From Phycisphaerae bacterium (GTDB lineage Bacteria; Planctomycetota; Phycisphaerae; UBA1845; Fen-1342), in NCBI GenBank assembly GCA_022072445.1, contig JAJVHV010000003.1, positions 135,204-199,203 of the forward strand: 64,000 bases of DNA, read 5' to 3'. Both the position numbers and the translations under genes were made by a program. Positions 17,670-32,088 of the stretch are shown piece after piece. The stretch's first letter is position 1; each line of letters starts with the position of its first letter. The notes under the pieces were generated by a model. It was not told the DNA's origin and ran no database searches. It saw nothing but the letters and a program-made list of their open reading frames with translations.

Positions 17670-19037
17670 ATGTCGATCGTTCGCTTTTGCCTGTGCAGTC
17701 TGATGCTCGCCGGATTGTCTTTCAACGAGGTTGCGGCGCAACAGCCGCGCGACCTCGCCCCGCTGCTGTCTGAGGTCCGCGAAAAAACGCGCGCACCCGG
17801 GCTGGCCGCGGCCGTCATGCGCGATGGAAAACTCGCCGGTGCGGGCGTCACCGGCGTCCGCCAGCTCAACGACCCGGCGGCGGTCGAGCGTGGCGACCTG
17901 CTCATGATCGGATCCTGCGGCAAGTCGCTCACCCGGCTGCTGATCGGGCGGCTCGTGGACCGCAGGCTGCTCTCGTTCGAGTCCACCCTGAAGGAACTTC
18001 TGCCCGACGTGCCGATGCGCGACGAGTACGCCCGGGTCAGCATCGCCGACCTGCTCGCACATCGCGGCGGGATACAGCCCTACACCGAGATCGGCCCGCG
18101 CCGCACGCCCAAACTCTTCGAGCTAACCGGCACGCCGCGCGAGCAACGCGCCGCGTTCGTGGCGCACGTCCTGAACGAGCCGCCCGCGGCGACGCCCGGC
18201 GCGCGCATGGTGTATTCCAACGCCGGCTACGGCCTGCTCGGCCACGTCGCCGAACGCCTCTTGAAGCAATCGTTCGAGGAAGCTCTGCGCGCCGAGGTGT
18301 TCGAGCCGCTGGCGATGAAGTCGGCGATCGTCGGGTTGCCAAACAGCGGACCGGGCCGGACCGGTCTGTTCGGCCACCGCCGCGACGGGCAGACGTTTCG
18401 GCCGGTCGCGGAGGCGCACGAGCCGCTGGCCGCCATCGCACCCGCTGGCATGATGAGCTGCTCCATTGACGATTTTGCGCGTTTCGCGGCGCAACTCGCC
18501 GCCAACGAGGCCGGCAAGCCCGGCAAGTTCCTCACCGACGCCACCGCCCGGAAGCTGCGCGAGGCACGCCCGGGCGATCCCGACGGCGAGGGTGAAATCT
18601 TTTTCGGCGGCGAAGGGACGTACACCGCAGCGTTTGCGCTCTGGCCGAGCCGCGGCGTGGCGATCGTGGTGGGGACGAACGCGGGCGACAGCGACGACGT
18701 GTGCGAAGCGGCGATCGACGCGCTTCGCGCGGCCTGCGCGCCCGACATTCCGGCGCGCCGCGCGGCGCGCGACGACGCCGCCGCAAGCGGTCCGCGGTAC
18801 GGCTTTATGATCCGCGCTGACGATTCCGGGCGTTGGACCGTCGATCGCGTGGAGGCGGGCTCGGCCGCGGAGCGCGGCGGCGTGAAAGCCGGCGACGTGA
18901 TCGTCGCCATCGACGGCGAGTCGCTGGACAACATCCCGGAGGAGCGGCGCGGCGATCGTCTTCGCAAGAGTCCGCTGAAGATCAGCGTCGAGCGCGACGG
19001 CCGATCCGTCGAGCTGCTGCTCAAGCACGGCGGTTGA
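17670..19037 (+). CDS. Secreted serine hydrolase (beta-lactamase family) with C-terminal PDZ domain
   Basis: This 455-residue protein has an N-terminal signal peptide. The class C beta-lactamase/DD-peptidase fold is marked by S82-C-G-K85 (SxxK) and Y182-S-N184 (YxN), followed by GYGLLGHVAERLL. The usual third motif (HxG/KTG) is not seen; the equivalent region reads FFGGEGTYTAAF. Residues about 370-455 form a PDZ domain (VDRVEAGSAAERGGVKAGD, VIVAIDGESLDN). The combination suggests an envelope esterase or peptidase that recognises peptide ends or oligomerises through PDZ. It stands alone. True beta-lactamase activity is unlikely. Confidence 0.85.
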   Translation: MSIVRFCLCSLMLAGLSFNEVAAQQPRDLAPLLSEVREKTRAPGLAAAVMRDGKLAGAGVTGVRQLNDPAAVERGDLLMIGSCGKSLTRLLIGRLVDRRLLSFESTLKELLPDVPMRDEYARVSIADLLAHRGGIQPYTEIGPRRTPKLFELTGTPREQRAAFVAHVLNEPPAATPGARMVYSNAGYGLLGHVAERLLKQSFEEALRAEVFEPLAMKSAIVGLPNSGPGRTGLFGHRRDGQTFRPVAEAHEPLAAIAPAGMMSCSIDDFARFAAQLAANEAGKPGKFLTDATARKLREARPGDPDGEGEIFFGGEGTYTAAFALWPSRGVAIVVGTNAGDSDDVCEAAIDALRAACAPDIPARRAARDDAAASGPRYGFMIRADDSGRWTVDRVEAGSAAERGGVKAGDVIVAIDGESLDNIPEERRGDRLRKSPLKISVERDGRSVELLLKHGG

Positions 19038-19099
19038 GCAGCGCGGCATCGGGCGCGCTCACCTCGGCACCTGCCGGGCACGCCGGCGCGATCGGGCGC

Positions 19100-19723
19100 C
19101 TATCGCGCCGCGCGGGCCGTCAGCAACGCCGACGCCGCGGCCCATTCGTCCGGCGTGTTGACGTTGGTCCAGCACGCGGCGAATTCGGCGGGTGGCACGG
19201 GTGTTGCGATGCCGCTCGCGCCGCGCAGTTCGTGCAGCGCGAATTCGCCGCGCGCGGCCCGCGCTTCGAGCCGCGGCAGCGCCGTCGGCTCGTAGATCGC
19301 AAACAGCGGCTCGGCGCGTCTCCCGTCGATGGAAGGCAGGATCGCGACGGATCGCTCGCCACGCTGCGCGACGAGCCACTCGATCGCGCGTCGTTCGATC
19401 AGCGGCAGATCGCACGCGACAACCAGCCACGCGGCGCCGGGATGGCGTCGCAACGCGGCCAGGATGCCCGCCAGCGGGCCGGCGGCGTCGGATGCGTCGG
19501 CGATGCGCTCCAGCCCGGCGAGTGCCGGCGGAATTTCGCCGCCGCCCAACAGATGCCGCGGCAGGTCGAGCCCGTCGAACTGCGCGAGAATTTGCTCGAT
19601 CAGCGTTCGGCTGCCGACCGGCAGCAGCGCCTTCGGCCGGCCCATGCGCGAACTCGCGCCGCCCACCAGCACGCCGGCCCGCAGCGTCGTCGCCATCCCG
19701 GGTTTCGCCGAAGCCATTGCCAT
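19100..19723 (-). CDS. mobA: Molybdenum cofactor guanylyltransferase (MobA-like)
   Basis: This roughly 207-residue nucleotidyltransferase has the GTP-binding opening GVLVGGASSRMGRPKALLP, then AGPLAGILAAL, VVACDLPLIERRAIEWL and near the end WTNVNTPDEW, all standard for MobA. It would attach GMP to molybdopterin in the cytoplasm. The open frame runs upstream to 19786, but that extension translates the dispersed palindromic repeat (MGGAGILPAR), so a start at 19723 (or 19696) is more likely; no strong ribosome site decides it. No other molybdenum cofactor gene is adjacent. A paralogous MobA-like transferase for another cofactor cannot be excluded. Confidence 0.8.
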   Translation of the reverse strand: MAMASAKPGMATTLRAGVLVGGASSRMGRPKALLPVGSRTLIEQILAQFDGLDLPRHLLGGGEIPPALAGLERIADASDAAGPLAGILAALRRHPGAAWLVVACDLPLIERRAIEWLVAQRGERSVAILPSIDGRRAEPLFAIYEPTALPRLEARAARGEFALHELRGASGIATPVPPAEFAACWTNVNTPDEWAAASALLTARAAR

Positions 19724-19758
19724 GGACTTTCGCCCGGTGGCTGCCCGTTCCGAGCATC

Positions 19759-19779
19759 GGGCGGGCAGGATGCCCGCCC
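19759..19779. repeat. REP-like palindrome
   Basis: GGGCGGGCA and TGCCCGCCC form a perfect 9-bp stem with a 3-base loop, just upstream of MobA. A related but less perfect copy (GCGGGCCGGATGCCCGCACC) lies at about 43422-43445, inside the end of the receptor-tip gene. Confidence 0.7.
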
Positions 19780-19810
19780 CACCCATGATGCACGATCCTG
19801 CTGGACTACA

Positions 19811-21301
19811 CTAGAACCGCAGGGTGTATTGGAAGTAGAGCAGGCTGACGTTTTCGCTCGCCCCGGTCGCCTGAATCACATCCGAGTCCCAATAGTGCGA
19901 ATAACCGAACAGGAACGTCGAGTGCGCGTCGACCGTCCATTCGAGCGCCAGGTCCAGCTCGCTGCCGACTTCGCGCCCCGCCCCACCGGTCGGATCGCGC
20001 CGCAGCACGCTGCGCGGACTCGTGTAGAGCGCGTCCTGCACCTGCGTCAGCCAGAACATGTGATACGCCGCGCGGGCCGTCAGCGCGTCGTGCGGCTTGA
20101 TCGACACGTTGACGTTCGGGCTGATGATGTTCGGACGCGTCCCTACCTTGACGTAGTTATCCAGCGGCGTCAGACCGGTGGCGAAGAGCGGGTCATACGT
20201 CTGCACCATTCCGTCCGTGGCGTTGCGGTCGCCCGTGGTGATGATGAAGCCGGCCCCGGCCCGCGGCTTGGCGGGCAGGTCAAACGTCCAGCCGGTGTCG
20301 GCGGTGCTGTGCCAGGCCTGCACGGTGTCGCCCGCAAACTTGCCCCACTGTCCCGACACTTCCGTCTCGTAGTCCCACGGCCCGGTCTTGCCCCAGAAGC
20401 GCGAGCCGACCGTGTAGAGCGACAGGTCGCCGACGTGGCCGTTGGGGTTCGTCAGGTCGCCCGTGTGCCGGTGCGCGAACACGTAGGCGTCGACACCGTG
20501 ATCCTTGTTGAGTTTCCACGACCAGTGCGAGCCGTAGAAGTGGCTCTGCTCGTCATAGTCGTCCAGCGTGTGCGTCCCGCCGGTGTCCGCGTCGACCGGC
20601 ACGGGCCGCACGTAAAACACGTCAGCCTTCAGCTTGCCGTCATCCCACAGAATCTTGGCGCCCTCGAAGCGGCGGCGCGTGTTGCTGGTGTCGGAGATGC
20701 CGACCAGGCGCTCCTTGCCGTAGAGCATTTCCTGCCGGCCGACGCGCAAGGTGAGCGGCACATCTTCGCCCAGAAAACGCAGGTCCGCGAAGAACTGGTG
20801 AAAGTCCCAGCGGTTCTCCTGAAACGTCTGCTTCGCGATATTGACCGTTTCGGCGCGGCTGTCGATGCCTTCGAAGTAGATGCGGATCAGCTTGCGGTAG
20901 CGGGCGCTGACGTGCACCAGCCCGCGCCGCAGCACGATCGTGTCCTGCGACGGATCCTGATCGCCGAAACGCCGGTTCATCACGCCCTGAAGCATGACGC
21001 GGTACTCGCCGCCGAACTCCATCCGCCAGTCTTCGCCGATGCGGATGTTCTTGATTGGATCGAAAATGTCAGGCGTGTAGGACTCGGGCGGGCCGTCGAG
21101 ATAGGTGAAATCGTCGTCGTAGCGCAGCTTCTCGTACTTCGGACCACGCTTCGCCGCCGCCGGTTTGCTGGCGGCGCTGGCCGGCTGCGAGGCGGGCGGA
21201 CCGCTCTGCGGCGTCGGGGCGGGCGATTGAGCGCGCAGCTCCAGTGCTGTTACGGCTGCCAGAACCAGGCCCAAGGCAACGTCTGCGTTTCGTCGATACA
21301 T
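19811..21301 (-). CDS. Alginate-export-type outer membrane porin
   Basis: This 496-residue protein has a signal peptide, then a Pro/Ala-rich linker (PTPQSGPPASQPASAASKP), then an outer-membrane beta-barrel of the AlgE/alginate-export domain family: FGGEYRVMLQGVMNR, LRVGRQEMLYGKERLVG and FEGAKILWDDGKLKADVFYV. It ends YFQYTLRF; a terminal Phe is typical of proteins handled by the BAM machine. It probably lets an acidic polysaccharide or oligosaccharide cross the outer membrane, but the true cargo is unknown and no alginate genes lie nearby. The start at 21301 has GGAGAG upstream; the longer frame overlaps the next gene. Confidence 0.8.
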   Translation of the reverse strand: MYRRNADVALGLVLAAVTALELRAQSPAPTPQSGPPASQPASAASKPAAAKRGPKYEKLRYDDDFTYLDGPPESYTPDIFDPIKNIRIGEDWRMEFGGEYRVMLQGVMNRRFGDQDPSQDTIVLRRGLVHVSARYRKLIRIYFEGIDSRAETVNIAKQTFQENRWDFHQFFADLRFLGEDVPLTLRVGRQEMLYGKERLVGISDTSNTRRRFEGAKILWDDGKLKADVFYVRPVPVDADTGGTHTLDDYDEQSHFYGSHWSWKLNKDHGVDAYVFAHRHTGDLTNPNGHVGDLSLYTVGSRFWGKTGPWDYETEVSGQWGKFAGDTVQAWHSTADTGWTFDLPAKPRAGAGFIITTGDRNATDGMVQTYDPLFATGLTPLDNYVKVGTRPNIISPNVNVSIKPHDALTARAAYHMFWLTQVQDALYTSPRSVLRRDPTGGAGREVGSELDLALEWTVDAHSTFLFGYSHYWDSDVIQATGASENVSLLYFQYTLRF

Positions 21302-21389
21302 GTTCTCTCCACGTGCTGACCGCGACGCGCGTGGAGCAGTGAAGATAGCGGATGAATCGCCGTGCCGGTAGAGGACGTTGGCTCGTCCG

Positions 21390-22469
21390 TCAGGCCACTG
21401 CGGCGGGTCGCTCGGCACCCAGAAACTCCAGCGCCGTGCCGCTCAGAATTGACGCTCGCTGCTGCTCGCTCAGCCCCGCGAGCGACTCCACGCACGCTCC
21501 GGGAATCGCTTCCCCCAGCGGGAACGGATAATCCGAACCCAGCGCTACGCGCCGCGCGCTGAACAGCTCCACCAGCCGAGCCAGCGCCGCCGCGTCGTGC
21601 GTCAGCGAATCCACGTAGAACCGCGCCGGCCGAATCTCGGGCGTTCCATCCGAGTTCGTGGCGCCCGTCGGCCCGGCCAGATACGCCTCGGGCGGCACGG
21701 CACAATCGACCGCACACAGGTCCGGTCGGGCGGCAAACCCGTGGCCAATCCTCCCAATCGTGCCGGCGAAGCTCCCGCCCCCATGCGCGAAGCACACCCG
21801 CAAGCGCGGCAACCGCTCGAGCACACCGCCGAAGATCATGGAGCAGATCGCCAGGCACGTTTCGGCCGGCATGCCCACCAGCCAGGGCAGCCAGTACTTC
21901 GGCATGCGCTCGCGCCCCAGCATCTCCCACGGATGCACGAATACGGCCGCGCCCAGGCTCTCGGCCGCCTCAAAGACCGGCCGGACCGCCGCGTCGTCGA
22001 GATTTGCCCCGTTGACGTTCGTCCCGATCTGCACGCCGCTCAGCCCCAGCCCGCCGCTCCGCGACGGCGTCACGCAGCGCTCCAACTCGCGGATCGCCAG
22101 GTCGGCGTCCTGCATCGGGATCGTCGCCAGGCCCAAGAAGTGCTGCGGGTCGGCCGCGATCACGGCGGCAAGGTGATCGTTCAGCCGCCGGGCCAGATCC
22201 AGCGCGTCGGCCGCCTTGGCCCAGTAGCTGAACATCACCGGCACCGTCGAGAGCACCTGCACGTCGACGCGGCTGCGGGCGCAGTCCTCCCGCCGCCGTG
22301 CCGGACTCCAGCAGTTCTCCTCGACCTCGCGGAAGACGCGCTCGCCGATGAGCAGCCGCGCGCGGCACGGCGCGTGGTGCTCGATCCGCACCCACCCGGG
22401 ATAGCCGTAGCGCTCCACCAGGTCGGGCCACGTCTCCGGCAGGATGTGCGTGTGCAGGTCGATCTTCAT
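21390..22469 (-). CDS. 2-Amino-3-carboxymuconate-6-semialdehyde decarboxylase (ACMSD)
   Basis: This 359-residue amidohydrolase-2 protein matches ACMSD along its length: MKIDLHTHILPE (zinc ligands H6, H8), RYGYPGWVRIEHH, NCWSP, VQVLSTVPVMFSYWAKA, VFVHPWEML, KYWLPWLVGMPAET, FAHGGGSFAGTIGRI and LGSDYPFPLGEA (metal Asp). It decarboxylates the ring-opened 3-hydroxyanthranilate product to aminomuconate semialdehyde in tryptophan/kynurenine or nitrobenzoate breakdown. An insert near 270-285 (TGATNSDGTPEIRP) is unusual. No other kynurenine-pathway gene lies close by. The preceding gene in the same direction is an EthD protein. Confidence 0.9.
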   Translation of the reverse strand: MKIDLHTHILPETWPDLVERYGYPGWVRIEHHAPCRARLLIGERVFREVEENCWSPARRREDCARSRVDVQVLSTVPVMFSYWAKAADALDLARRLNDHLAAVIAADPQHFLGLATIPMQDADLAIRELERCVTPSRSGGLGLSGVQIGTNVNGANLDDAAVRPVFEAAESLGAAVFVHPWEMLGRERMPKYWLPWLVGMPAETCLAICSMIFGGVLERLPRLRVCFAHGGGSFAGTIGRIGHGFAARPDLCAVDCAVPPEAYLAGPTGATNSDGTPEIRPARFYVDSLTHDAAALARLVELFSARRVALGSDYPFPLGEAIPGACVESLAGLSEQQRASILSGTALEFLGAERPAAVA

Positions 22470-22551
22470 GCCCGAATCGCCTCATGCGCGGGCCGCGGCC
22501 GCCGCGCGGGGCCGCGGCGCCGCCCAATCGCTTGCCACCGCGCCGCAACCT

Positions 22552-22857
22552 TCAAACCGGCCGCACTTCCGCGAACACGAGGTGCACCAGCTTGCCGGCG
22601 AACCCCATCAGGTCCTTGCCCGCCGCTTTGCCCTCCGGCGAGCCGAGCGCCGCGACCGCCGCCTCCTGCGAGTCGAAGTACATCTCCGCGATGAGATGGT
22701 AATCGGTAGCGCCCATCGGCGAACCGGTGACGCGCGCCACCTCGATCCGCCGCAGCCCCGGCATGCGGCCCGCCAGCGGCGCGTGAACGTCGAAATAGTG
22801 CACGTCGAACGCCTCGGCGTTCTCAGGTTTGCGGTACAGCGCAATGAGCTTGACCAC
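22552..22857 (-). CDS. EthD-domain protein (GTG start)
   Basis: This 101-residue protein begins VVKLIALYRKPENAEAFDVHYF; the GTG at 22857 was chosen because an AAGGAG ribosome site lies 8 bases before it and the fold starts there. The EthD ferredoxin-like domain is shown by HYFDVHAPLAGRMPGL, ATDYHLIAEMYFDSQEAAVAALGSPEG and a final LVHLVFAEVRPV. Members act as small dimeric alpha+beta barrel proteins, some in degradation of ethers or of polyketide intermediates. It lies 82 bases before ACMSD in the same direction, so both may belong to a small catabolic unit. Confidence 0.85.
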   Translation of the reverse strand: MVKLIALYRKPENAEAFDVHYFDVHAPLAGRMPGLRRIEVARVTGSPMGATDYHLIAEMYFDSQEAAVAALGSPEGKAAGKDLMGFAGKLVHLVFAEVRPV

Positions 22858-23145
22858 CGGTGCATCTCCTTCCGAATCGCGGCACGCCCGTTTCGTCGCG
22901 CGCCCTGCCGCCGCGGCATCATAGTGTACTGCCGAACTCGCAACCCGGACCGCTGACGCGTATCCGCCGGCGAGCCGCGAAATGCGGCACACCCGCCCCC
23001 GGCCGTGCCACGCCCCGCCAACCTTCACGCCCGCGCGGCCGCTTTGACCCGCCGCTCCAGACGCCGCATGATCAGCGCTTTCAGCGAGGGCCGGGTCGAT
23101 CACGGCTTCGCCTGAGCTCGATCCTTCGATTGACGCGGAGCCGAC

Positions 23146-24114
23146 ATGAATCGCCTGCAGAGTGCCGCCAGCTCATTTGCCCTACTTCTGCTTCCGCTCC
23201 TGGTGTCGTGTCAGGCGTCGGCGCCGCGCGCCGGGTCCGCGCCACCCGCGAACGCGACCGCCGCCAGTCACGAACCGATCCGCGTCGGCGCCTGGAACAT
23301 CGAATGGCTGGGCACCCCTGAGAGCCGCTCCGGCCCGGCCAAGGGCGTCGCGCAGACGGCCGACGATCTGGCCGAGTACATCGCCGCCGCTCGCGTCGAC
23401 ATCCTCGGCCTCGAAGAAATCGGCGCCAGCGAGCACACCGACCCACCCACCAGCGACACGCTCACCGCCGCCTTTCAGACCGTCTCGCAGCGCGGCGGCG
23501 GCGCGTGGCGGCACCGGCTCTTTCCCGCCCGCAGCGGCCGCAACCAGCTCTGCGGCGTGGCGTGGAACGAGCGTCGCGTGACGCCCGTCGGCGGGCCGCG
23601 CGTCGCGACCGAGCCCAGCGCGCAGAGTGCGCAGGGCAAGCCGCTCTGGTCGCGTCCGCCCTGGGGGCAGACGTTCTCGGCCGGCGACGGGCTGAGCGAT
23701 TTCGTCGTCGTCGTCGTTCACATGAAGAGCGACTACGGCGGAGATTTCGCCGAGCATCGCGCGGGCGAGGCGGCGACGCTGACGCGCGACCTCCGCTCCG
23801 CGTTCACCGACGGCGACCTGCTGATCATCGGCGACGCGAATTGCGACACGCATTCCGAACCCGCCGTCGCAGCGCTGGAACAGGCCGGATTCGTCGACCT
23901 GAACCGCGCTGACACCGCGACCCACCTGCGCTACGGCGCACTGGACCGGGCGTTTGTCCCCGCCGCGCAGCCCGAGTTCGCGGCGTGCAGCTTCGAGGTC
24001 CTCAGCGACGTTTTTCTTCAGCAGCGCGGGCTGACGAAAGACGATTTCAAACGCCGCTTTTCCGATCACTTCATGGTGATTACGACGGTGGCGGTGATGC
24101 CGGATGACGACTGA
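23146..24114 (+). CDS. Endonuclease/exonuclease/phosphatase-family lipoprotein
   Basis: This 322-residue protein has a lipobox signal (LLPLLVSC), so it is lipid-anchored outside the cytoplasm. The DNase I-like fold is marked by IRVGAWNIEWLG (metal Asn), DILGLEEIG (metal Glu), VVVHMKSDYGG, LLIIGDANCD and RFSDHFMVIT near the end (catalytic Asp-His). Such extracellular members degrade DNA or act as phosphodiesterases for nutrient uptake. It stands alone on the plus strand. The substrate is not decided by sequence. Confidence 0.85.
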   Translation: MNRLQSAASSFALLLLPLLVSCQASAPRAGSAPPANATAASHEPIRVGAWNIEWLGTPESRSGPAKGVAQTADDLAEYIAAARVDILGLEEIGASEHTDPPTSDTLTAAFQTVSQRGGGAWRHRLFPARSGRNQLCGVAWNERRVTPVGGPRVATEPSAQSAQGKPLWSRPPWGQTFSAGDGLSDFVVVVVHMKSDYGGDFAEHRAGEAATLTRDLRSAFTDGDLLIIGDANCDTHSEPAVAALEQAGFVDLNRADTATHLRYGALDRAFVPAAQPEFAACSFEVLSDVFLQQRGLTKDDFKRRFSDHFMVITTVAVMPDDD

Positions 24115-24169
24115 TGTGCAGCGGCACGCAAACCACGCAGGTCGCACCGCACCTACAGGCGACGTGAGC

Positions 24170-24196
24170 TTGCCACTGGGATGGGCGTGTTATCTT
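24170..24196 (+). promoter_or_regulatory. Possible promoter of the cysteine-rich peptide gene
   Basis: TTGCCA and TATCTT, separated by 15 bases, lie about 65 bases before the peptide start in a stretch slightly richer in A+T. The short spacer makes this a weak candidate. Confidence 0.3.
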
Positions 24197-24258
24197 GCAG
24201 AGAGGGTCTGCCGGGCGCCTTCGATCGGAGACGATGAAAGGAGTGTAATGATGTTGTC

Positions 24259-24513
24259 ATGCTGCTCTTGTCAAGCCTGCTGATGGTCGCCCCCCCCACC
24301 GCTCCGTTGATCGAAGGTCCCGATGATGGAATCTGCACATCCGGCAGTTGCACCCAGCCGGCAGACCGCGACGACTGCGCATACTGCTGTCCGGGAATAA
24401 TCACCTGCTGCACGTGTTGCGGAAACAACTACACTCCCGGCTCGGCGGGTTGGTACTATTGCCGTGCGTACTGTGCCGACATCCACGGGCCGAAAACCTG
24501 CCCGGGTACTTGA
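24259..24513 (+). CDS. Small secreted peptide with 12 cysteines
   Basis: This 84-residue protein begins MLLLSSLLMVAPPTAP, a plausible export signal, and the remainder carries 12 cysteines: ICTSGSC, CAYCCPG, ITCCTCCG, YYCRAYC and KTCPG. Aromatic residues and glycines lie between them, like disulfide-rich or metal-binding mini-proteins. An AAAGGAG ribosome site ends 15 bases before the chosen ATG, which is long; an ATG nearer to it opens an 11-residue out-of-frame peptide that overlaps the start, so translation coupling is possible. A secreted thioredoxin-fold protein gene follows after 36 bases. I do not recognise the family. Confidence 0.55.
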   Translation: MLLLSSLLMVAPPTAPLIEGPDDGICTSGSCTQPADRDDCAYCCPGIITCCTCCGNNYTPGSAGWYYCRAYCADIHGPKTCPGT

Positions 24514-24549
24514 TGAACGCGCCGAAAATCGCGCAAAGGCTCGGCAACC

Positions 24550-25665
24550 ATGACATCCCTCATCATTCTCGCGCTCCTGGCGTCGGGACCCTCGCGCGCC
24601 GATAAGACCGAAATTCAGGCCCGCGACTGGTTCAACAACCCCGTTTTCCGCATCCACGACGATCGGCGTGTGTTGCTCTTCTTCTTTGAGTGCGCCGACC
24701 CGAAGGCGGGCCGGACGGCTGCCCGTCTGAACAAGCTGGTTCGTCGCGGCGATCTGGTCGTAATCGGCCTCACCGCTGACGACGCCGACGATGCCAAACG
24801 CTTCATCGCCCGGCACAAGGTGAAATTCACCGTCGGAGCGCGCAGCCGCAGCGCCAAACAGTTCGGTTGCGAGCGCCTGCCGACGCTGCGCCTTCTGACG
24901 CGCGGCGACGACGAGCCGATCCGTGAGATCGACGACGCCCGAATTGCCGTCCTCTACGAATCCGACACGATCTACGGCCCGTACGGAAACGAGGACATCA
25001 GTGGCCTGACGACGGCCGACGAGCTGCGCGACTTCGTCCAGAGCGCCGCGGAGGGCAACAACCGCGCCGCCGCAACCTGGAAGCTGCGCCGTGTCAGCGC
25101 GCCGGCCGAATTCCAGTCCTTCGCGGCCGAGCGGCTGGCGGAGGAGACCGACCCGTGGGTGCGCGGCGTCCTGCGCTATCTGTTGAGCAATCCCAGCGCG
25201 ACCGAACCGGATCAGCCGCGCTCACCGTCCGCAACGTACGCAGTCGACTACGGCGGCAACCCGGATGATCCCAAGTGGAGCGCGGTTCGCAGCTTGCGCA
25301 TCGGAGAAGCCAGCGACAGCGCGCAGCTTCGCGACTTGTATGCGAAACACTCCAGCGATACGCCCACCGATGTTCTGGTCCGCCGGCAGGTGGTCGAGCG
25401 GATGGGTAGCATCGCCGATCGCGCTTTGGCGCGTGAGCAACTGCTGTACGCGGTGCGCTCCGACGCCGATCCTTCCATACGCATGATCGCCGCAATGAGA
25501 CTCGGCGAGTTGTGCCAGCCCGGCGACGTGGAGACAGCCGATCTGCTCGACGAGATCGGCGGCGCGGAGCGCGAGCCCCTGCGCGTCCGGCCGATGGTCG
25601 AGTACGTCGCGGAGTACCTGAGAACCGGCATCGAAGACACGCGCCACATGACCGCGCGTCCCTGA
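24550..25665 (+). CDS. Exported thioredoxin-fold protein with C-terminal HEAT-like repeats
   Basis: This 371-residue protein has a signal peptide (MTSLIILALLASGPSRA). Residues about 20-160 have a thioredoxin/AhpC-like order: LLFFFECADPKAG, LVVIGLTADD, KRFIARHKVKFTVG, and a cis-Pro site CERLPTLRLL. Only one cysteine is at the usual active site (CADP rather than CxxC), so it is not a normal disulfide oxidoreductase. Residues 170-370 contain helical repeats of HEAT type (ATWKLRRVSAP..., VVERMGSIADRALAREQLLYAV, AAMRLGELC). It is next to the 12-cysteine peptide gene. A chaperone or redox partner role is an inference. Confidence 0.65.
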   Translation: MTSLIILALLASGPSRADKTEIQARDWFNNPVFRIHDDRRVLLFFFECADPKAGRTAARLNKLVRRGDLVVIGLTADDADDAKRFIARHKVKFTVGARSRSAKQFGCERLPTLRLLTRGDDEPIREIDDARIAVLYESDTIYGPYGNEDISGLTTADELRDFVQSAAEGNNRAAATWKLRRVSAPAEFQSFAAERLAEETDPWVRGVLRYLLSNPSATEPDQPRSPSATYAVDYGGNPDDPKWSAVRSLRIGEASDSAQLRDLYAKHSSDTPTDVLVRRQVVERMGSIADRALAREQLLYAVRSDADPSIRMIAAMRLGELCQPGDVETADLLDEIGGAEREPLRVRPMVEYVAEYLRTGIEDTRHMTARP

Positions 25666-25686
25666 AGTTCTCGCGCCGCAGCGCCC

Positions 25687-27120
25687 CTATTCCCCGCCCT
25701 CGTCACCCTCGGCCGGCGGCGGAACCGCCTCTTCAACCACCGGCGGCTGCGGCTCCGGCGGTTGCGGCTGATTCGTCTGACCCGTCGCCGCGTCGCGCTT
25801 CGGGCGCACCGGCAGGCGGGTCGTGTGGCCCGTCTTGGACGCGTCGGTTTTCTCGCCCTTCGCGCCACGGACAGTGGTCTTCGGGCCGGCGGCCTCCGCC
25901 GCACGACGCTGAGCGCGCGTCGGCAGCTTCTCCAGCCGCGGCTTGAGCTGCTTCTCGAAAATCTCGTCAACCGCCTCGACCAGCTTGCCGCGCTGCTGCG
26001 TCAGCTCCGTCAGCTTCTGGCCCTTCTCCTTCTCATCCTTGGCCGCCGTCACCTTGGCGATCTCGGCGTCGAGCGACTCGAGCTTCGACTTGTCGCGCGC
26101 CAGCCGCCGCGTGGCCTGGTCCTTGCAGTCCTTCAGGATGTCGTTGGCCTTCTGCGTCTGGCCCGCGTCAAGCTGATACTTCGCGATGAAATCCTTGACG
26201 TACTGATCCCACTTCGACTCCCACCCCGGACCCGACGTGCTCGACGCCTGATGCTGCATCCGCCGCGACGAACCCGGCGGCGACGACACCGCCCGGCCGC
26301 CCCGATTGCCATGCGCCACCACCGCCGCCGGCGGAGCCTCGACCGCCGGCGTCTCCATCGGCGGCTCGACCACCACGACGTGCTCCTGCGGCTCGGGGTT
26401 ACCCGGCTCAGAGCCCGGATGCGTGCGAAGATTCGGATTGCGATCCGGACGCAACGGCCGCGCCGCCGGCGGAGCTCCCGCCGACGACTCCGAGACCACC
26501 GCGGCGTCATCCGGCGGCGCCGCTTCCACAGGCGGCTCGGCCTGACTGACGACCTGCGTCTTGGGACGCTGCACGACGCGGTCGTTACTGCGCTGCCGGC
26601 GCGGCTTGCGGAACTCGTCGACCGTCATCTCGCCGGTCACGATCCGCTGAAGCTGGTCTTCGGTCGTCGAGAAACTCTCTTCCATCTGCCTGACGTCGCC
26701 GTCGTGGATCGCCTTCTGCCGCTCGTCGAGGATTTCACGCCATTCGGAGTTGCCGGCGACGATGAACTGCTTGGCCGCCTGATACACGGGCAGCGAACGC
26801 TTGCCCCAGTCCACCAACTCGTCCTGCTCCATCTCGGCGCCCGTCCGCACCTCGAACATGCGGTCGAGCAGGTCGCGCACTTCCTGTCCGTTCGCCCCCA
26901 TGAAGTCGTTCGCCTTCGCGTGCAGCAGCTCCTTCGTGAACGCCGCCTGCTCATCCGTCAGGTCATACTTGCGCACCAGAAAGTTCGCGTACGTGTCGAC
27001 CATCAGGTCGACGTTCATCAGCGAACTCCACCGCGTCTTGGGCTTGTCCTGACCCAGCGCGGCGTCGGCCACGAACAGCACGGCTATCGCGAAAAGCGTC
27101 GCGGTTATGCGACCTTGCAT
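25687..27120 (-). CDS. Exported coiled-coil protein, function unknown
   Basis: This 477-residue protein has a signal peptide ending ALGQ, a helical N-terminal domain (MNVDLMVDTYANFLVRKYDL, FTKELLHAKANDFM), a Pro/Ala-rich linker at about 190-290, and a second helical domain predicted to form a coiled coil (KWDQYVKDFIAKYQLDAGQ, then LARDKSKLESLDAEIAKV). The tail is Pro-rich and ends in Gly/Glu. The two helical parts look alike, with a repeated 'Y-L-(D/T)-x-x-Q-x-x-K/F' start, resembling Spy/CpxP-type or LTXXQ-like periplasmic proteins. I do not recognise a named family. It is convergent with the preceding gene. Confidence 0.7.
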   Translation of the reverse strand: MQGRITATLFAIAVLFVADAALGQDKPKTRWSSLMNVDLMVDTYANFLVRKYDLTDEQAAFTKELLHAKANDFMGANGQEVRDLLDRMFEVRTGAEMEQDELVDWGKRSLPVYQAAKQFIVAGNSEWREILDERQKAIHDGDVRQMEESFSTTEDQLQRIVTGEMTVDEFRKPRRQRSNDRVVQRPKTQVVSQAEPPVEAAPPDDAAVVSESSAGAPPAARPLRPDRNPNLRTHPGSEPGNPEPQEHVVVVEPPMETPAVEAPPAAVVAHGNRGGRAVSSPPGSSRRMQHQASSTSGPGWESKWDQYVKDFIAKYQLDAGQTQKANDILKDCKDQATRRLARDKSKLESLDAEIAKVTAAKDEKEKGQKLTELTQQRGKLVEAVDEIFEKQLKPRLEKLPTRAQRRAAEAAGPKTTVRGAKGEKTDASKTGHTTRLPVRPKRDAATGQTNQPQPPEPQPPVVEEAVPPPAEGDEGGE

Positions 27121-27272
27121 GACGAGATTCTCCCTTGTGTTGGTCGATCCTATCAGCAGTCGGCTGACGGGCAGGACGACCACACGTATTATAGCGATTG
27201 CCGCACCGCCGGTTGCACGGCCCGCTTCCGCCGGCGCGACCAACGTCAGATAAAAACCAGCGTGAGAACTCA

Positions 27273-27950
27273 ATGGGACTGATTTCACCCGCGGTCGTTT
27301 CACCGCCCGCGACACCCGTTCCAAAAGCGTGCCTCCTCGATCTGGACGGAACGCTGCTCGACACCCTCCACGACATCGCGCACGCCGTCAACAGCGGACT
27401 CGAACTTCTCGGACTATCGCCGCTCCCCGCCGACGATTATCGCTACAAGGTCGGCGAAGGCGTGCCCGCCCTCTGCCAGCGAACCATCGGCGATTCGCAC
27501 CCGCACCTGGTGGGCCGCCTGGCCGAACTGGCCCGCGCGATCTACCGCGCCGAGCTCATCCGCCACACGCGGCCCTATCCCGGAGTCGAGGCACTCGTCC
27601 GACGGCTGCGCGGCGCGGGCGTGCGGCTGGGCGTGCTGTCCAACAAACCGCACGACATGACCTGCCGCATCATCGACGCGTTCTGGCCCGACGGCGCATT
27701 CGCCTTCGTCCAGGGCTACGTCGACCACGCCACCCGCAAGCCCAACCCGTTCTTCATCGATCGCTTCTGCCGGACGCTGGACGTCGACGCCGCCGAGATC
27801 TGGGTGATCGGCGACACACCGACCGACGTCGAGGCCGCCCGCCGCGCGGGTGCGCCCTGTATCGCCGTCACGTGGGGGTTCCGCTCGCGCGCCGACCTCT
27901 TGGCCTCGTCGCCATGGCGGATCGTCGATCGACCCGAGGATATTCTGTAG
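27273..27950 (+). CDS. gph: HAD-family phosphatase, phosphoglycolate phosphatase type
   Basis: This 225-residue protein has the HAD motifs: LLDLDGTLLDT (nucleophile Asp), VLSNKPHDM (motif II), then HATRKPNP (motif III Lys) and WVIGDTPTDVEAARRAGAP (motif IV). The cap region after motif I is helical, as in Gph. It would remove phosphate from 2-phosphoglycolate made during DNA repair or by oxygenases; other small sugar phosphates are possible. The start at 27273 follows a short leader with no strong ribosome site. It is divergent from the coiled-coil protein gene. Confidence 0.85.
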   Translation: MGLISPAVVSPPATPVPKACLLDLDGTLLDTLHDIAHAVNSGLELLGLSPLPADDYRYKVGEGVPALCQRTIGDSHPHLVGRLAELARAIYRAELIRHTRPYPGVEALVRRLRGAGVRLGVLSNKPHDMTCRIIDAFWPDGAFAFVQGYVDHATRKPNPFFIDRFCRTLDVDAAEIWVIGDTPTDVEAARRAGAPCIAVTWGFRSRADLLASSPWRIVDRPEDIL

Positions 27951-28164
27951 GCTCTGAAGAGCTTTGGAGAGCAGCCGCCCGCGGCTGCACTCCCGGATGG
28001 GCAGATCCGGTGACATGCTCTCGCCGCCAGGCCTGAGAGCATGCTTCGCACTTGTGCGCATGCTTCGCACTCGCGCGCACCGTTCGTCACTCGCGTTTCA
28101 AGATTCGCTCCTCTTGACGCCACCCACCGCCGGGATGACCATCCCGCCCGCACAGGAGCACCTC

Positions 28165-28626
28165 ATGAAATCCCTCACCCCGCTCGCGCTGGCCCTCTTC
28201 CTCGTCGGCTGCACCGCCGCCCGCGACGACTCCGTCGCCCACCAGGTCCAACGCGTCCTCCAGCGCCAGGCCGACGCCTGGAACCGAGGCGACGTCGACG
28301 CCTTCATGTGCGACTACGTCCGCGGCGACGACCTCACCTTCAGCAGCGGCGGCGAGACCCACCGCGGCTGGGACCAGACGCTGAAGCGCTATCGCGCCCG
28401 CTATCCCGACCGCGCCAGCATGGGAACCCTGCGTTTCGACCAGCTCGAAACGACCCCGCTCGGCGATGCCCACGCCCTCACGCTCGGCCGCTGGCACCTG
28501 ACACGCGCCGTGGGTAACGTCAGCGGAAACTTCTCGCTTATCTGGCGACGCCAGAACGGCGCCTGGCGCATCCTTCACGACCACACCTCGCAGAGCCCCG
28601 CACCCCCAACCCAGCCCGCGCCCTGA
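28165..28626 (+). CDS. NTF2/SnoaL-like lipoprotein
   Basis: This 153-residue protein starts MKSLTPLALALFLVGC with a lipobox Cys and an AGGAG ribosome site. The body is a DUF4440/SnoaL-like cone fold: VLQRQADAWNRGDVDAFM, FSSGGETHRGWDQTLKRY, HALTLGRWHL, FSLIWRRQNGAWRILHDHTS. Such domains bind small ligands or are inactive enzymes. The 213-base gap before it contains a short direct repeat (GCATGCTTCGCACT twice near 28035) and no gene. Confidence 0.8.
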   Translation: MKSLTPLALALFLVGCTAARDDSVAHQVQRVLQRQADAWNRGDVDAFMCDYVRGDDLTFSSGGETHRGWDQTLKRYRARYPDRASMGTLRFDQLETTPLGDAHALTLGRWHLTRAVGNVSGNFSLIWRRQNGAWRILHDHTSQSPAPPTQPAP

Positions 28627-28759
28627 GCCGATCTATCGAAGAAGCTGGCGGCCGGACGAGCGTCCGGCCGCCGGCCGTTGTCCGACCCACCGCGCTGCGA
28701 TCCGGTTGACGCGCGTGGATCGGCATCCCCGTGCCGCTTACGGGCGTCGCCACGGGCCA

Positions 28760-29266
28760 CTACCCTTCAACACCCGCCAGCAGCAGTGCAATGAACGGGT
28801 CGATGTCGAAGCCGTCGACCTTTCCGTCGCCGTTGATGTCCGCGCGGCGCCGGTCGCACGACCCGTACACCAGCATGTAGTGCTCCGGCTCCGTCAGCGC
28901 CATCAGAAACGGCTCCAGGTCGAAGCTGTTCACCCGGCCGTCGCAGTTCAGATCGCCTCGCCGTCCGAATTTCCACCCGACCGCTCCGCCCGACTCGGCC
29001 TCGTTGGCCCCGCCGACCCCCGCCACGTCATCGTGCCGCGGACTCCGCAGCCGGATCCGCTGCATCGACTGCGCCCCGACAAACTCCCCGTCCGCCGTCG
29101 GCGGAACCAGCCGGATCACCGTGATGTCGTCGACGCCGAAGAGGTAAATCGCCTCCGCCGTTTCCAGCGCCTTGCGTGCCTGCACCTCACCACCGCTGCA
29201 CACCGCCAGGCTCGCGGCGTAGCACAGACCGAAGACCGTCGCGGTTGCCAGCATCTTGCGCGTCAT
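28760..29266 (-). CDS. Small secreted dockerin-like EF-hand protein
   Basis: This 168-residue protein has a signal peptide (MTRKMLATATVFGLCYAASLA) and an AAGGAA ribosome site. A short region of unknown function follows (IYLFGVDDITVIRLVPP). The C-terminal half is a pair of calcium loops: DLNCDGRVNSFDLEPF and DINGDGKVDGFDIDPF, close to the tails of the hydrolase at 4569 and the CBM protein at 9947. No catalytic domain is present, so it may be an adaptor or structural piece that uses the same docking system. Confidence 0.8.
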   Translation of the reverse strand: MTRKMLATATVFGLCYAASLAVCSGGEVQARKALETAEAIYLFGVDDITVIRLVPPTADGEFVGAQSMQRIRLRSPRHDDVAGVGGANEAESGGAVGWKFGRRGDLNCDGRVNSFDLEPFLMALTEPEHYMLVYGSCDRRRADINGDGKVDGFDIDPFIALLLAGVEG

Positions 29267-29447
29267 GATCCATTTCCTTGTGCGGTGGCCGGTCTGAGCC
29301 GGCCGGGGCGATCGCGTGTATCCGTCGGCGGCGACGCGCGACCGCTTGTCGTCTGCCGCCGGGGATGATTTCGTGCCTCGCGTCCGAAAATGACACACGC
29401 GGCACGGCGCGCCATCCGAGAGCGTGCTTTCGAGGGTGTCCGCCAGA

Positions 29448-29600
29448 GCCGCGCCCGTCAGGAAGCGGCGGCCCGCGCGATCGCCCCTTCGCGCAGGGCG
29501 CCCCCCAGCCGAGCCCCGAGCGTCAGCGAGGGTTCGACCTGAGCGTGCCTCCGAACTCGGCGATCGTGCCCCATCCGAGCCCCGAGCGTCAGCGCGGGGC
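29448..29600. repeat. Dispersed repeat cluster, GAGCCCCGAGCGTCAGCG core
   Basis: The 393-base gap 29267-29659 has no gene. It holds three related copies, near 29448 (diverged), 29511 and 29577, of a unit with the core GAGCCCCGAGCGTCAGCG. The middle copy continues with AGGGTTCGACC. The same unit in the opposite orientation makes up the block at 4157-4555. Confidence 0.7.
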
Positions 29601-29659
29601 CCTGTCCGCCCGTGGTCGCGGGAACGGATTACCTTGATATTATAGAAATCGGTGTTATG

Positions 29660-31948
29660 CTACACCCCCGCCGCCGCCAGCTTCGGCCCGGCGGGCGGGT
29701 GAAACTCCTTGGTCGACGGCCCGGCCCGCTCCAACGCCTCCAGCACGATCGACCGCGTCAGAACCTCCGGCAGCACGATCACCTCGTCCGGCTTGCCCGC
29801 CGGAACGATGATGTTCAGCGGCACCCCGTTCCGCCCGTGCTTTTGCAGCTCGGCCTGAATCGCCGCACTCGGCTTCGTGAAATCCGCCTTCAGCGGATAC
29901 ACGTTCGCTTCGATCAGCCGCTGCCGCACGGCGTTGGTCTCCAGGATCCACCGCTTATTGGTCTGACAGGTCAGGCACCAGTTTGCCGTGAAATCCACAT
30001 AGACCGTATAACCTTCACCCGCCAGCTTTTCCGCCAGCCCCGGCTCCCACTTCTGCCACGGAATCTTCTGCCACGCGCCGAAGACCTGCTGCCCGCCGAA
30101 CCAGCCGATCACCAGAATCGCGGCACTATAGAGATAGAAAGCCACCGTCCGCCGCCGCGGCGAGTTCAGATCGAGCTTGCCGATCAGCCAGCAGGCCATC
30201 CCCACCGCGCACAGGAACACCAGCCCGGCCATGAACCCGGCCTCGTCGAGCAGCGCATGCAGAATCGAGAGCAGCCAGACCAGCGTGCCCAGCAGCACGA
30301 AGCCCATCAGCTCCTTGAACGTCACCATCCACGCCCCCGGCTTCGGCAGGTAGCGCAGCCAGGCCGGGAACGCCGTCAGCAGCACGTACGGCGCCGCCAG
30401 CCCGACGCCGACCATCATGATCCCGGCACCCATCGCCAGCGCCGGCAACTGCGTCAGGATGCCCAGCGCCGCCCCCAGAAACGGCGCCGTGCACGGCGTC
30501 GCCAACGCGGTGGCCAGCACGCCGTTCATGAACGAGCCGGCGTAGCCCTCGCGTGCGGTGGCTTCTCCCATGGCCGACATCGCGGCGCCGGGGAGCTGGA
30601 TTTCGAAGACGCCGAACAGACTCAGCGCGAACGCCAGCATCACCGCGCACAGGACGACGACGTACGTGGGGCTCTGCATGATGCCGCCCCACGGAGCGCG
30701 AAACGCAACCATGATGATCGCCAGCACGGCAAAGCTGGCGAGGATTCCGCCGGCGTACGTCAGGCCGAACATCAGCAGCCGCGCGCGGCTTTCGCCGGCG
30801 ATCTGCAGAAAGCTGAAGACTTTCAGCGAGATGACCGGCAGCACGCACGGCATGATGTTGAGGATCACGCCACCCAGAAACGCCCAGAAAAACACGAGCG
30901 CCAGCCCCGGTGCGACACCGTTGGCCGGCCCGCCGCCCGCCGCCGCTCCGCCGGCGTCGAGCTGCGCGCTGAAAACCGGCGCGTCGGACTTCGCCACGCT
31001 CGCGTCCGCCGCCGCGACCTGTATCGCCACCTGCCACTCGGCCATCTGCGGCAGAAAGCACTGGCCGCTCTCGTCGCAGGCCTGATATTGAAACAGCCCG
31101 CGCAGCCGGCCCGGGCCGGCCGGAATCTGCGAGTCGGCCAGCTTCAGCGGCACGCGCACGTAGAGCGTGCCGTCGTGCTGCCGGACGCGGCCGACCTCCT
31201 TGATGTCCACGGTTTTCGGAGCACTCCAGAGCTCGCGATCTCGCTGCATCTCGAAGCCGTCGGGCACCGCGACAAACAGCCGCGCGCCGATCAGGCCGGC
31301 GACGCCCGGAACGCGATCTTGAACATGCAGGCCCTTTTCGATCTCGATCGTCAGGCCGAGCTCAAACGTGTCGCCGGCGCGGATCGGCGACTGGCTTACC
31401 GCCGCCACACCCTTCAGGCTCGGCGCGGCCGAGAGCGGCGCCGGCATCGCCGCGCGGGCGTCGGCGAACAGCTTTTCATTCGCCGCCACCCCCATTTGCC
31501 CCTGCACCGGCAGCTTGAGCGACGCGCCGGCGTTGACGATCACGCACGAAATCTTGCACGCCAAAGCCGACACTTCGACCTTGATGTCCAGCGGCGTGCC
31601 CGGCGCGACCGACGCGGCGACGCGCAGCGGCGCCAGGAACACGAGCTTGCCGTGGTACCCCAGATAATCCATGTCCGCGGCGCGGTCGAGTTGTGGCGTC
31701 GGAAAGCGGACGTCGCCGATCTCGACGCCCACGGGCGCCTCGAACTTGAAGCTGGTGGCGAAGCCGGTGTCGAGCAGGATGTAGTGGTAGATGTGCCACT
31801 TTTCGCCGACTGTCACTTCGATCGCCAGCTCGGTTTCGCCACCCGGGCTGACGGCCTGGTGTGCGGCGTGCAGGCGGGCGGTGAAAGTCGGCGGCGGCTC
31901 GGTTTGCAGGGCACAGGCCAGGCACGCGAGGGTGGAAAGAAGCGTCAT
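29660..31948 (-). CDS. dsbD: Thiol:disulfide interchange protein DsbD-like
   Basis: This 762-residue inner-membrane protein has three parts. Residues 1-340 are exported beta domains with paired cysteines (SALACKISC and ACDESGQC). Residues about 360-620 form the eight-helix DsbD core with NIMPCVLPVISLK and ATPCTAPFLG, the two membrane cysteine sites. The C-terminal thioredoxin domain has C658-L-T-C661 in ANWCLTC and a cis-Pro in GVPL. It moves electrons from cytoplasmic thioredoxin to periplasmic disulfide enzymes or cytochrome c maturation. It could be needed for the disulfide-rich secreted proteins of this window, although that link is only inference. Confidence 0.92.
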   Translation of the reverse strand: MTLLSTLACLACALQTEPPPTFTARLHAAHQAVSPGGETELAIEVTVGEKWHIYHYILLDTGFATSFKFEAPVGVEIGDVRFPTPQLDRAADMDYLGYHGKLVFLAPLRVAASVAPGTPLDIKVEVSALACKISCVIVNAGASLKLPVQGQMGVAANEKLFADARAAMPAPLSAAPSLKGVAAVSQSPIRAGDTFELGLTIEIEKGLHVQDRVPGVAGLIGARLFVAVPDGFEMQRDRELWSAPKTVDIKEVGRVRQHDGTLYVRVPLKLADSQIPAGPGRLRGLFQYQACDESGQCFLPQMAEWQVAIQVAAADASVAKSDAPVFSAQLDAGGAAAGGGPANGVAPGLALVFFWAFLGGVILNIMPCVLPVISLKVFSFLQIAGESRARLLMFGLTYAGGILASFAVLAIIMVAFRAPWGGIMQSPTYVVVLCAVMLAFALSLFGVFEIQLPGAAMSAMGEATAREGYAGSFMNGVLATALATPCTAPFLGAALGILTQLPALAMGAGIMMVGVGLAAPYVLLTAFPAWLRYLPKPGAWMVTFKELMGFVLLGTLVWLLSILHALLDEAGFMAGLVFLCAVGMACWLIGKLDLNSPRRRTVAFYLYSAAILVIGWFGGQQVFGAWQKIPWQKWEPGLAEKLAGEGYTVYVDFTANWCLTCQTNKRWILETNAVRQRLIEANVYPLKADFTKPSAAIQAELQKHGRNGVPLNIIVPAGKPDEVIVLPEVLTRSIVLEALERAGPSTKEFHPPAGPKLAAAGV

Positions 31949-32088
31949 GCACGCAGTCTCCGCTGGTACGGGTCGTTCAGCAGATATGGTAGATCAGGTC
32001 CGGCACGCGGGCGAATCCAAGTAGCGGCGCCGTCGCGTCGGGCCTGCTTGCCCCCTTGACAAGCCCGACTTCATAGGAGGGCCGACGC

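What the first reader, a model, noticed from the sequence alone, without database searches (positions are those of the whole stretch)
24248..25665. Secreted 12-cysteine peptide next to a single-cysteine thioredoxin-fold/HEAT protein
The 84-residue peptide has an export-type start and 12 Cys in a short body, including CC and CCxCC clusters. The adjacent exported protein has a thioredoxin fold lacking CxxC. An overlapping 11-residue frame (rich in Cys) opens nearer to the ribosome site. Candidates: a metal-binding or disulfide mini-protein with a dedicated redox or chaperone partner.
Basis: partly seen in the sequence, partly recalled or inferred. Interest (0 to 1): 0.55.

Follow-up and report, generated by a model that had tools for sequence, protein, structure and literature searches.

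The report
Secreted cysteine-rich peptide plus dead-thioredoxin partner
A small secreted peptide packed with cysteines and the exported thioredoxin-like protein beside it form a conserved two-gene cassette in uncultured planctomycete bacteria, and in relatives such secreted cysteine-rich genes often sit behind slippery DNA repeats that look like on/off switches.

Summary
The 84-aa, 12-Cys ORF (24259-24513) is the most Cys-rich of 208 window ORFs of 60-150 aa, and its Cys framework recurs in relatives, directly upstream of the same thioredoxin-fold/HEAT gene at 18 places in 11 genomes. The partner has three cysteines, not one, but the catalytic CxxC is absent in 23 of 23 family members aligned: a redox enzyme is unlikely, a binding partner (chaperone or immunity-like) fits better. 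The new part is regulation: at 9 of 18 loci repeats sit in the promoter or leader (poly-G between -35 and -10, or (TTCCC)n before the ribosome site). Searched genome-wide, these elements mostly precede exported genes (29 of 32; 18 of 21) and are enriched for secreted Cys-rich ones (11 of 32; 15 of 21, versus 4 of 432 control genes). The window copy lacks such a promoter but has a C8 run in its signal sequence. Best reading: a secreted disulfide-rich effector or surface peptide with a dedicated non-catalytic partner, one item of a phase-variable secreted repertoire. Function and switching are inferred, not shown.

The parts
24170..24196 (+). weak promoter-like pair TTGCCA (24170-24175) - 15 nt - TATCTT (24191-24196), in the place where relatives carry repeat-containing promoters
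   Evidence: read; the consensus scan finds no promoter here, so this is a guess
24240..24243 (+). ribosome-binding-site-like GGAG
   Evidence: sequence
24248..24283 (+). overlapping 11-residue frame MMLSCCSCQAC, stops before the C8 run
   Evidence: sequence
24259..24513 (+). secreted Cys-rich peptide, 84 aa, 12 Cys
24290..24297 (+). C8 homopolymer inside the signal-sequence codons; one of two homopolymers of 8 or more in the 64-kb window
   Evidence: background 5 G/C runs of 8 or more in 400 kb of control DNA
24334..24501 (+). Cys framework, first to last Cys; C-terminal half modelled as a helical hairpin
24550..25665 (+). exported thioredoxin-fold + HEAT-repeat partner, 371 aa, no CxxC
24613..24939 (+). 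N-terminal TlpA/ResA-like thioredoxin domain (about residues 22-130)
25015..25626 (+). helical-repeat (HEAT-like) part (about residues 156-359)
25687..27324 (-). convergent neighbour, not part of the pair: exported protein ending in a 'KLPTR' helical domain that is also the C-terminus of partners of other Cys-rich secreted proteins in this genome

Best explanation
The locus is a self-contained two-gene cassette. Gene 1 makes a small secreted peptide whose ten to twelve cysteines form disulfides around a helical-hairpin core. Gene 2 makes an exported protein with a thioredoxin fold that has lost its catalytic cysteines, joined to a HEAT-like repeat; it most likely binds the peptide in the periplasm (holding chaperone and/or protection from the peptide) and does no redox chemistry. 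In relatives the cassette is one item of a larger repertoire of secreted Cys-rich proteins, some with an exported partner of their own, switched on and off by length changes in repeats (poly-G between the -35 and -10 boxes, or (TTCCC)n just before the ribosome site). The peptide would act outside the cell, on neighbours or at the cell surface. Shown here: conserved pair, conserved Cys framework, lost CxxC, repeats in promoters or leaders of relatives and their enrichment before exported Cys-rich genes. Inferred: disulfides, binding by the partner, switching, and the outside target.
For: Pair: a single-sequence peptide search of 101 genomes gives 5 best non-self hits that all lie next to partner hits; the profile search of 397 genomes gives 18 places at E<1e-6, all 18 directly upstream of the partner, 4 of them (G085 x3, G368) not used to build the profile. 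Cys framework: strict inner pattern in 12 of 16 peptide bodies, 8 of 20,000 shuffles. Lost CxxC: 23 of 23; N-domain fold TlpA/ResA-like. Independence of location: none of 7 window neighbours matches the flanks held of relatives, only the pair does. Repeats. Enrichment: first genes after poly-G promoters exported-like 29 of 32 versus 125 of 432 control genes, Cys-rich and exported 11 of 32 versus 4 of 432; after (TTCCC)n tracts 18 of 21 and 15 of 21. Spacers of the 50 poly-G promoters spread from 14 to 22 nt, as expected if they change length. Same architecture with other partners.
Against: The window's own copy has no poly-G or (TTCCC)n element; only a C8 run and an unconvincing promoter and start. 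Poly-G promoters also precede exported proteins that are not Cys-rich (18 of the 29 exported-like). 18 of 50 poly-G sites had no gene by the fixed rule, some because the contig ends. Tract lengths come from draft assemblies, one genome per species, so no within-population switching was seen. Five of 16 peptide bodies have an odd Cys count. The peptide model is of moderate confidence (pLDDT 68, three sequences) and has no structural match. Nothing shows that the partner binds the peptide. Three partner genes have no peptide upstream (G000:C7, G003, G004).
Confidence: 0.45

Rival explanations
1. Toxin and immunity. The peptide is a bacteriocin-like toxin released against close relatives; the exported pseudo-thioredoxin/HEAT protein is the immunity protein that neutralises it in the periplasm of the producer.
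For: Partner genes without an intact peptide exist (3 without any: G000:C7, G003, G004; 2 more with what looks like a peptide remnant: G088 upstream copy and G037:C72) but none of the 18 strong peptide hits lacks the partner, as with orphan immunity genes. The C-terminal half resembles alpha-hairpinins (PDB profile hits to vicilin-buried peptides, best E 0.13). Phase variation would fit a costly weapon.
Against: No gene of a known bacteriocin system was recognised beside the window pair. Window and G008 differ as much in the partner (44% identity) as in the peptide (45%), so the peptide does not change faster. The alpha-hairpinin match is not significant.
Confidence: 0.25
2. Surface or matrix protein. 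The peptide is cross-linked by disulfides into the envelope, a holdfast or matrix, and the partner escorts it; phase variation changes the surface against phages, grazers or competitors.
For: The repeat-associated set consists of exported proteins in general (29 of 32 and 18 of 21), of several Cys-rich families. Disulfide-rich planctomycete walls are recalled from memory, not from a call.
Against: The peptides are short and carry no sorting signal that was recognised; a literature search for Cys-rich planctomycete wall proteins listed seven papers, none on such proteins by title.
Confidence: 0.25
3. Metal-binding peptide (metallothionein- or copper-storage-like) with a partner that docks it.
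For: CxxCC pairs, few His, 12 Cys in 60 residues.
Against: Exported; no metal-transport or metal-sensor gene was recognised among the neighbours scanned; even Cys count in 11 of 16. No metal test was possible.
Confidence: 0.1
4. The window copy is a decaying or off-state gene: the start codon is badly placed after the ribosome site, an 11-codon frame competes, and a C8 run sits in the signal sequence.
For: Sequence of 24240-24300; start problems or stop codons also in G080, G010, G088 (upstream copy) and G037:C72.
Against: The whole Cys framework and the downstream partner are intact, with the framework matching the family.
Confidence: 0.2

Closest known systems
TlpA/ResA/DsbE-type thiol-disulfide oxidoreductases (AhpC-TSA / Thioredoxin_8)
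   Same: Thioredoxin fold of the N-terminal domain, export signal
   Different: No CxxC in 23 of 23 members aligned; fused to a HEAT-like repeat; paired with a Cys-rich peptide
Alpha-hairpinins / vicilin-buried peptides of plants
   Same: CxxxC...CxxxC on a helical hairpin in the C-terminal half
   Different: Eight to thirteen Cys instead of four, bacterial, no significant sequence match (best E 0.13)
Neisserial phase-variable promoters (fetA poly-C, porA) and opa (CTTCT)n repeats (passages of PMC5320596)
   Same: Homopolymer between -35 and -10, or pyrimidine-rich pentamer repeat at the 5' end of a surface-protein gene
   Different: Found in uncultured Planctomycetota, in front of secreted Cys-rich proteins; the pentamer tract lies before the ribosome site; length switching not shown
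Bacteriocin-immunity and toxin-immunity pairs
   Same: Small secreted Cys-rich product plus exported partner, partners without peptide
   Different: The peptide matches no Pfam or NCBIfam family and neither protein a PADLOC family; killing not tested

Membership tests
TlpA/ResA thiol-disulfide oxidoreductases | thioredoxin fold | tested here: met
   Foldseek against PDB: 3fw2 E 6.1e-4, then ResA, CcmG, DsbE entries, probability 1.00 over about 95-128 columns
TlpA/ResA thiol-disulfide oxidoreductases | CxxC active site | tested here: not met
   absent in 23 of 23 family members; present in the two outgroup TlpA-like proteins G038 (CGPC) and G032 (CSVC)
Alpha-hairpinin | two helices linked by disulfides between two CxxxC motifs | tested here: inconclusive
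   CxxCC-x11-CxxxC spacing, helices 47-57 and 63-76 in a model of pLDDT 68; PDB profile hits E 0.13-0.63; no usable Foldseek match
Metallothionein or copper-storage protein | metal bound through Cys thiolates | not testable with these tools
   no metal assay; no Pfam match
Promoter-type phase-variable (contingency) locus | homopolymer or short repeat in promoter spacer or leader | tested here: met
   met at 9 of 18 loci of the family in relatives; not met at the window locus itself, which has only a C8 run in the signal sequence
Promoter-type phase-variable (contingency) locus | tract length varies within a population and changes expression | not testable with these tools
   only between-species differences seen: 15 vs 11, 9 vs 6, 7 vs 7, 18 vs 11 units in orthologues of G037 and G085
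Toxin-immunity pair | peptide toxic, partner protective | not testable with these tools
   only gene-content asymmetry available

The most novel reading that the evidence does not exclude
An order of uncultured Planctomycetota carries a contingency secretome: many families of secreted Cys-rich peptides, alone or paired with a dedicated exported non-catalytic partner (pseudo-thioredoxin/HEAT, 'KLPTR'-domain proteins and others), whose expression is randomised cell by cell by slipping repeats, and in one genus by a promoter-leader cassette with (TTCCC)n copied in front of more than ten different genes. The pair in the window is one member of this arsenal.
Probability: 0.5. Interest if true: 0.85.

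Novelty: new variant of a known kind. Interest (0 to 1): 0.72.

Why it matters
Repeat-driven phase variation is known above all from host-adapted pathogens. Finding its sequence hallmarks in environmental planctomycetes, in front of a rich set of secreted Cys-rich proteins, would point to a free-living arms race (phages, grazers or competitors) and supply many unstudied mini-proteins. A thioredoxin fold that has lost its cysteines yet stays tied to a Cys-rich peptide is a concrete test case for how a redox fold is turned into a binding partner.

Tried and rejected
Redox partner: rejected because CxxC is missing in the whole family. Chance ORF: rejected by conservation. Plasmid or phage gene: the partner has no match in 72,556 plasmid records, the peptide none in 50,697 phage records. 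Known defence system: no PADLOC match. RNA element: no Rfam family in 18000-32000. Programmed frameshift at the start: considered because five loci (window, G080, G010, G088 upstream copy, G037:C72) lack a well-placed start; two of them look decayed, no shared slippery site was seen by eye, so not claimed. The in-frame TGA after MTMK in the G080 peptide is left unexplained. Weak peptide hits in G261, G067, G323, G191, G140 look like chance; G026 and G075 are Cys-rich ORFs without the partner of this family. The poly-G promoter is not special to this order: 69 of 298 genomes of the class have it; only the order was checked for downstream genes. A promoter-matched control gave only 12 genes (3 exported-like, 0 Cys-rich), too few, hence the 432-gene control, which is made of all ORFs by a simple rule and not of promoter-first genes. 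'Exported-like' means a hydrophobic stretch near the N-terminus by a simple score, not a signal-peptide predictor.

Full report
What is there. The window is part of a 5.25-Mb draft genome (G000, contig C3:135204-199203). Relatives with names are all uncultured planctomycetes: 'uncultured planctomycete isolate PLA1', 'Planctomycetota bacterium isolate B100T1B8', 'Planctomycetota bacterium BroJett003'. That they belong to the class Phycisphaerae is my guess and was not tested. The 84-aa ORF 24259-24513 has 12 Cys and the highest Cys fraction of 208 ORFs of 60-150 aa. The partner ORF 24550-25665 (371 aa) starts 36 nt after it. The partner has three Cys (C48, C107, C322), not one.

The pair is conserved. 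With the window peptide alone as query against 101 genomes, the five best non-self hits (G085, G008, G081 twice, G049) all lie beside partner hits; of the nine non-self hits with E<0.01, six do. Looking upstream of partner hits gave Cys-rich small ORFs at further places. An alignment of 14 peptides (A1) was then searched in 397 genomes: 25 places at E<=0.01, of which 18 at E<1e-6, in 11 genomes. All 18 lie directly upstream of a partner on the same strand. This is partly by construction, since most rows of A1 were found that way; four of the 18 (G085 C179, C87, C53 and G368) were new. On the partner side 21 places have a match at E<1e-50; 18 have the peptide, 3 do not (G000:C7, G003, G004). 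One further partner (G094) is cut by a contig end. Only 13 and 4 candidates per genome were scored at most, so counts may be low. None of seven neighbours of the window pair matches the flanks held of its relatives: the pair is the conserved unit.

The peptide. Sixteen bodies (of 18; two decayed ones left out) share CxxxC-x8-CxxCC-x5-CxxCC-x11-CxxxC with small changes; 12 of 16 match the strict inner pattern, against 8 of 20,000 shuffles of the window body; 11 of 16 have an even Cys count. No Pfam, NCBIfam or PADLOC family matches the window peptide. The AlphaFold2 model (three sequences, mean pLDDT 68) has helices at 39-43, 47-57 and 63-76; Foldseek finds nothing of use in the PDB. A profile search of PDB sequences gives only vicilin-buried peptides, which are alpha-hairpinins (recalled), at E 0.13-0.63 over the C-terminal half: a lead, not a result.

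The partner. The N-terminal domain is TlpA/ResA-like (3fw2 E 6.1e-4 and many ResA, CcmG and DsbE entries; Pfam HEAT_2 in 11, AhpC-TSA in 10, Thioredoxin_8 in 7 of 16 members). In an alignment with two TlpA-like outgroups that keep CGPC and CSVC, none of 23 family members has CxxC at that place. The paralogue G000:C7 has CFDC, but a few residues earlier. So the fold was kept and the chemistry probably lost.

Repeats in the promoters. Reading upstream of the peptides in relatives showed poly-G runs of 8 or more after TTGAC at four loci (G059, G080, G088 twice) and (TTCCC)n before the ribosome site at five (G037:C76, G085 four times), that is 9 of 18 loci; G008 has a run of ten A and G368 one of five G there; the window, G081 (three), G049, G010 and G037:C72 show none. 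The pattern TTGACN{0,10}G8N{0,6}TANNNT has one match in the whole of G059 and one in G080, both at this cassette; in G088 the two matches precede two other secreted Cys-rich ORFs (the two G088 cassettes themselves miss the pattern's -10 part). In 101 genomes there are 50 distinct sites in 33 genomes, against 2 for the reversed pattern. By a fixed rule (ribosome-site-like motif, ORF of 50 aa or more within 200 nt) 32 of the 50 have a first gene: 29 exported-like, 12 Cys-rich, 11 both; one of these is the family's own G059 peptide. In 432 genes of 464 kb control DNA (20 segments from 13 genomes plus the window) 125 are exported-like and 4 are both (Fisher p 3.5e-12 and 3.1e-11). The 50 spacers range from 14 to 22 nt. 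In 298 genomes of the class the pattern occurs in 69.

The pentamer repeats. In G037, G085 and G084, 25 (TTCCC)n tracts were examined; 21 have a first gene by the rule, 18 exported-like, 15 exported-like and Cys-rich (p 4.8e-20). The two main genomes are of one genus, so these are not independent events. The tracts mostly follow a conserved leader with a promoter such as TTGACCGTCCGATGCCTGTGGGGTATATT; a 104-nt piece of it has 13 matches in G037, 11 in G085, 1 in G068 and 0 in G084 (a few are pieces of one leader). Tract lengths differ between orthologues of G037 and G085: 15/11, 9/6, 7/7, 18/11 units, as far as assemblies can be trusted at repeats.

Other cassettes in the window's own genome. 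A poly-G promoter at G000:C17:44418-44445 precedes a 124-aa secreted protein with 15 Cys, followed by a 459-aa exported partner. The C-terminal domain of that partner (ending KLPTRAQR) has 13 matches in G000, including the convergent neighbour of our pair, and two more such partners (C12, C24) have a secreted Cys-rich ORF directly upstream. In G017 and G026 Cys-rich peptides precede another exported family (27% identity between the two partners). So 'Cys-rich secreted protein plus exported partner' is a recurring theme with different partners.

Reading. Lost catalytic site, constant pairing, several partner families and repeat control fit a secreted effector or surface peptide with a dedicated binding partner better than a redox couple. 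Partners without peptide, never the reverse, would fit immunity, but also a partner with a second role. The C8 run in the window peptide's signal sequence lies where slippage would shift the frame; with a background of 5 G/C runs of 8 or more in 400 kb this is unlikely to be chance, but it is a single case. Homopolymer spacers that change promoter strength (fetA, porA) and pentamer repeats (opa) are known in Neisseria (passages of PMC5320596). Six literature searches (listings and abstract starts seen, plus passages of PMC11266412, PMC5460018 and PMC5320596) showed nothing on this family or on phase variation in Planctomycetota; the library holds only open-licence papers.

Noticed in passing
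window 25687-27324 (-); G000:C17, C3, C8, C12, C15, C19, C24, C25, C4: A C-terminal helical domain ending in KLPTRAQR, with LTxxQ-like motifs (resemblance recalled, not tested), has 13 matches in this genome and is shared by partners of Cys-rich secreted proteins; no Pfam domain was reported for it.
   Followed up: partly
G037 and G085, e.g. L013:800-903: A promoter-leader cassette of about 100 nt with a (TTCCC)n tail is copied in front of more than ten different secreted Cys-rich genes.
   Followed up: partly
298 genomes of the class: Poly-G promoter spacers occur across the class; the genes behind them outside the order were not looked at.
   Followed up: no
G032:C1:2970234-2972712 (L242): A poly-G promoter precedes a 231-aa Cys-rich lipoprotein-like protein followed by a TlpA-like protein that keeps CxxC: possibly a relative of the pair with the active site intact.
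   Followed up: partly
L244, L248, L171, L164: Exported proteins of about 300 aa also sit behind poly-G or (TTCCC)n elements; the three scanned (L244, L248, L171) have no Pfam match above cut-off.
   Followed up: no
L009 (G080): The peptide frame has an in-frame TGA four codons after its best-placed ATG (MTMK*SKSIVIAV...).
   Followed up: no
G085 C50, C53, C87, C175; start of G000:C17: Contigs end in or next to these repeats, so the repertoire is probably under-counted in drafts.
   Followed up: no
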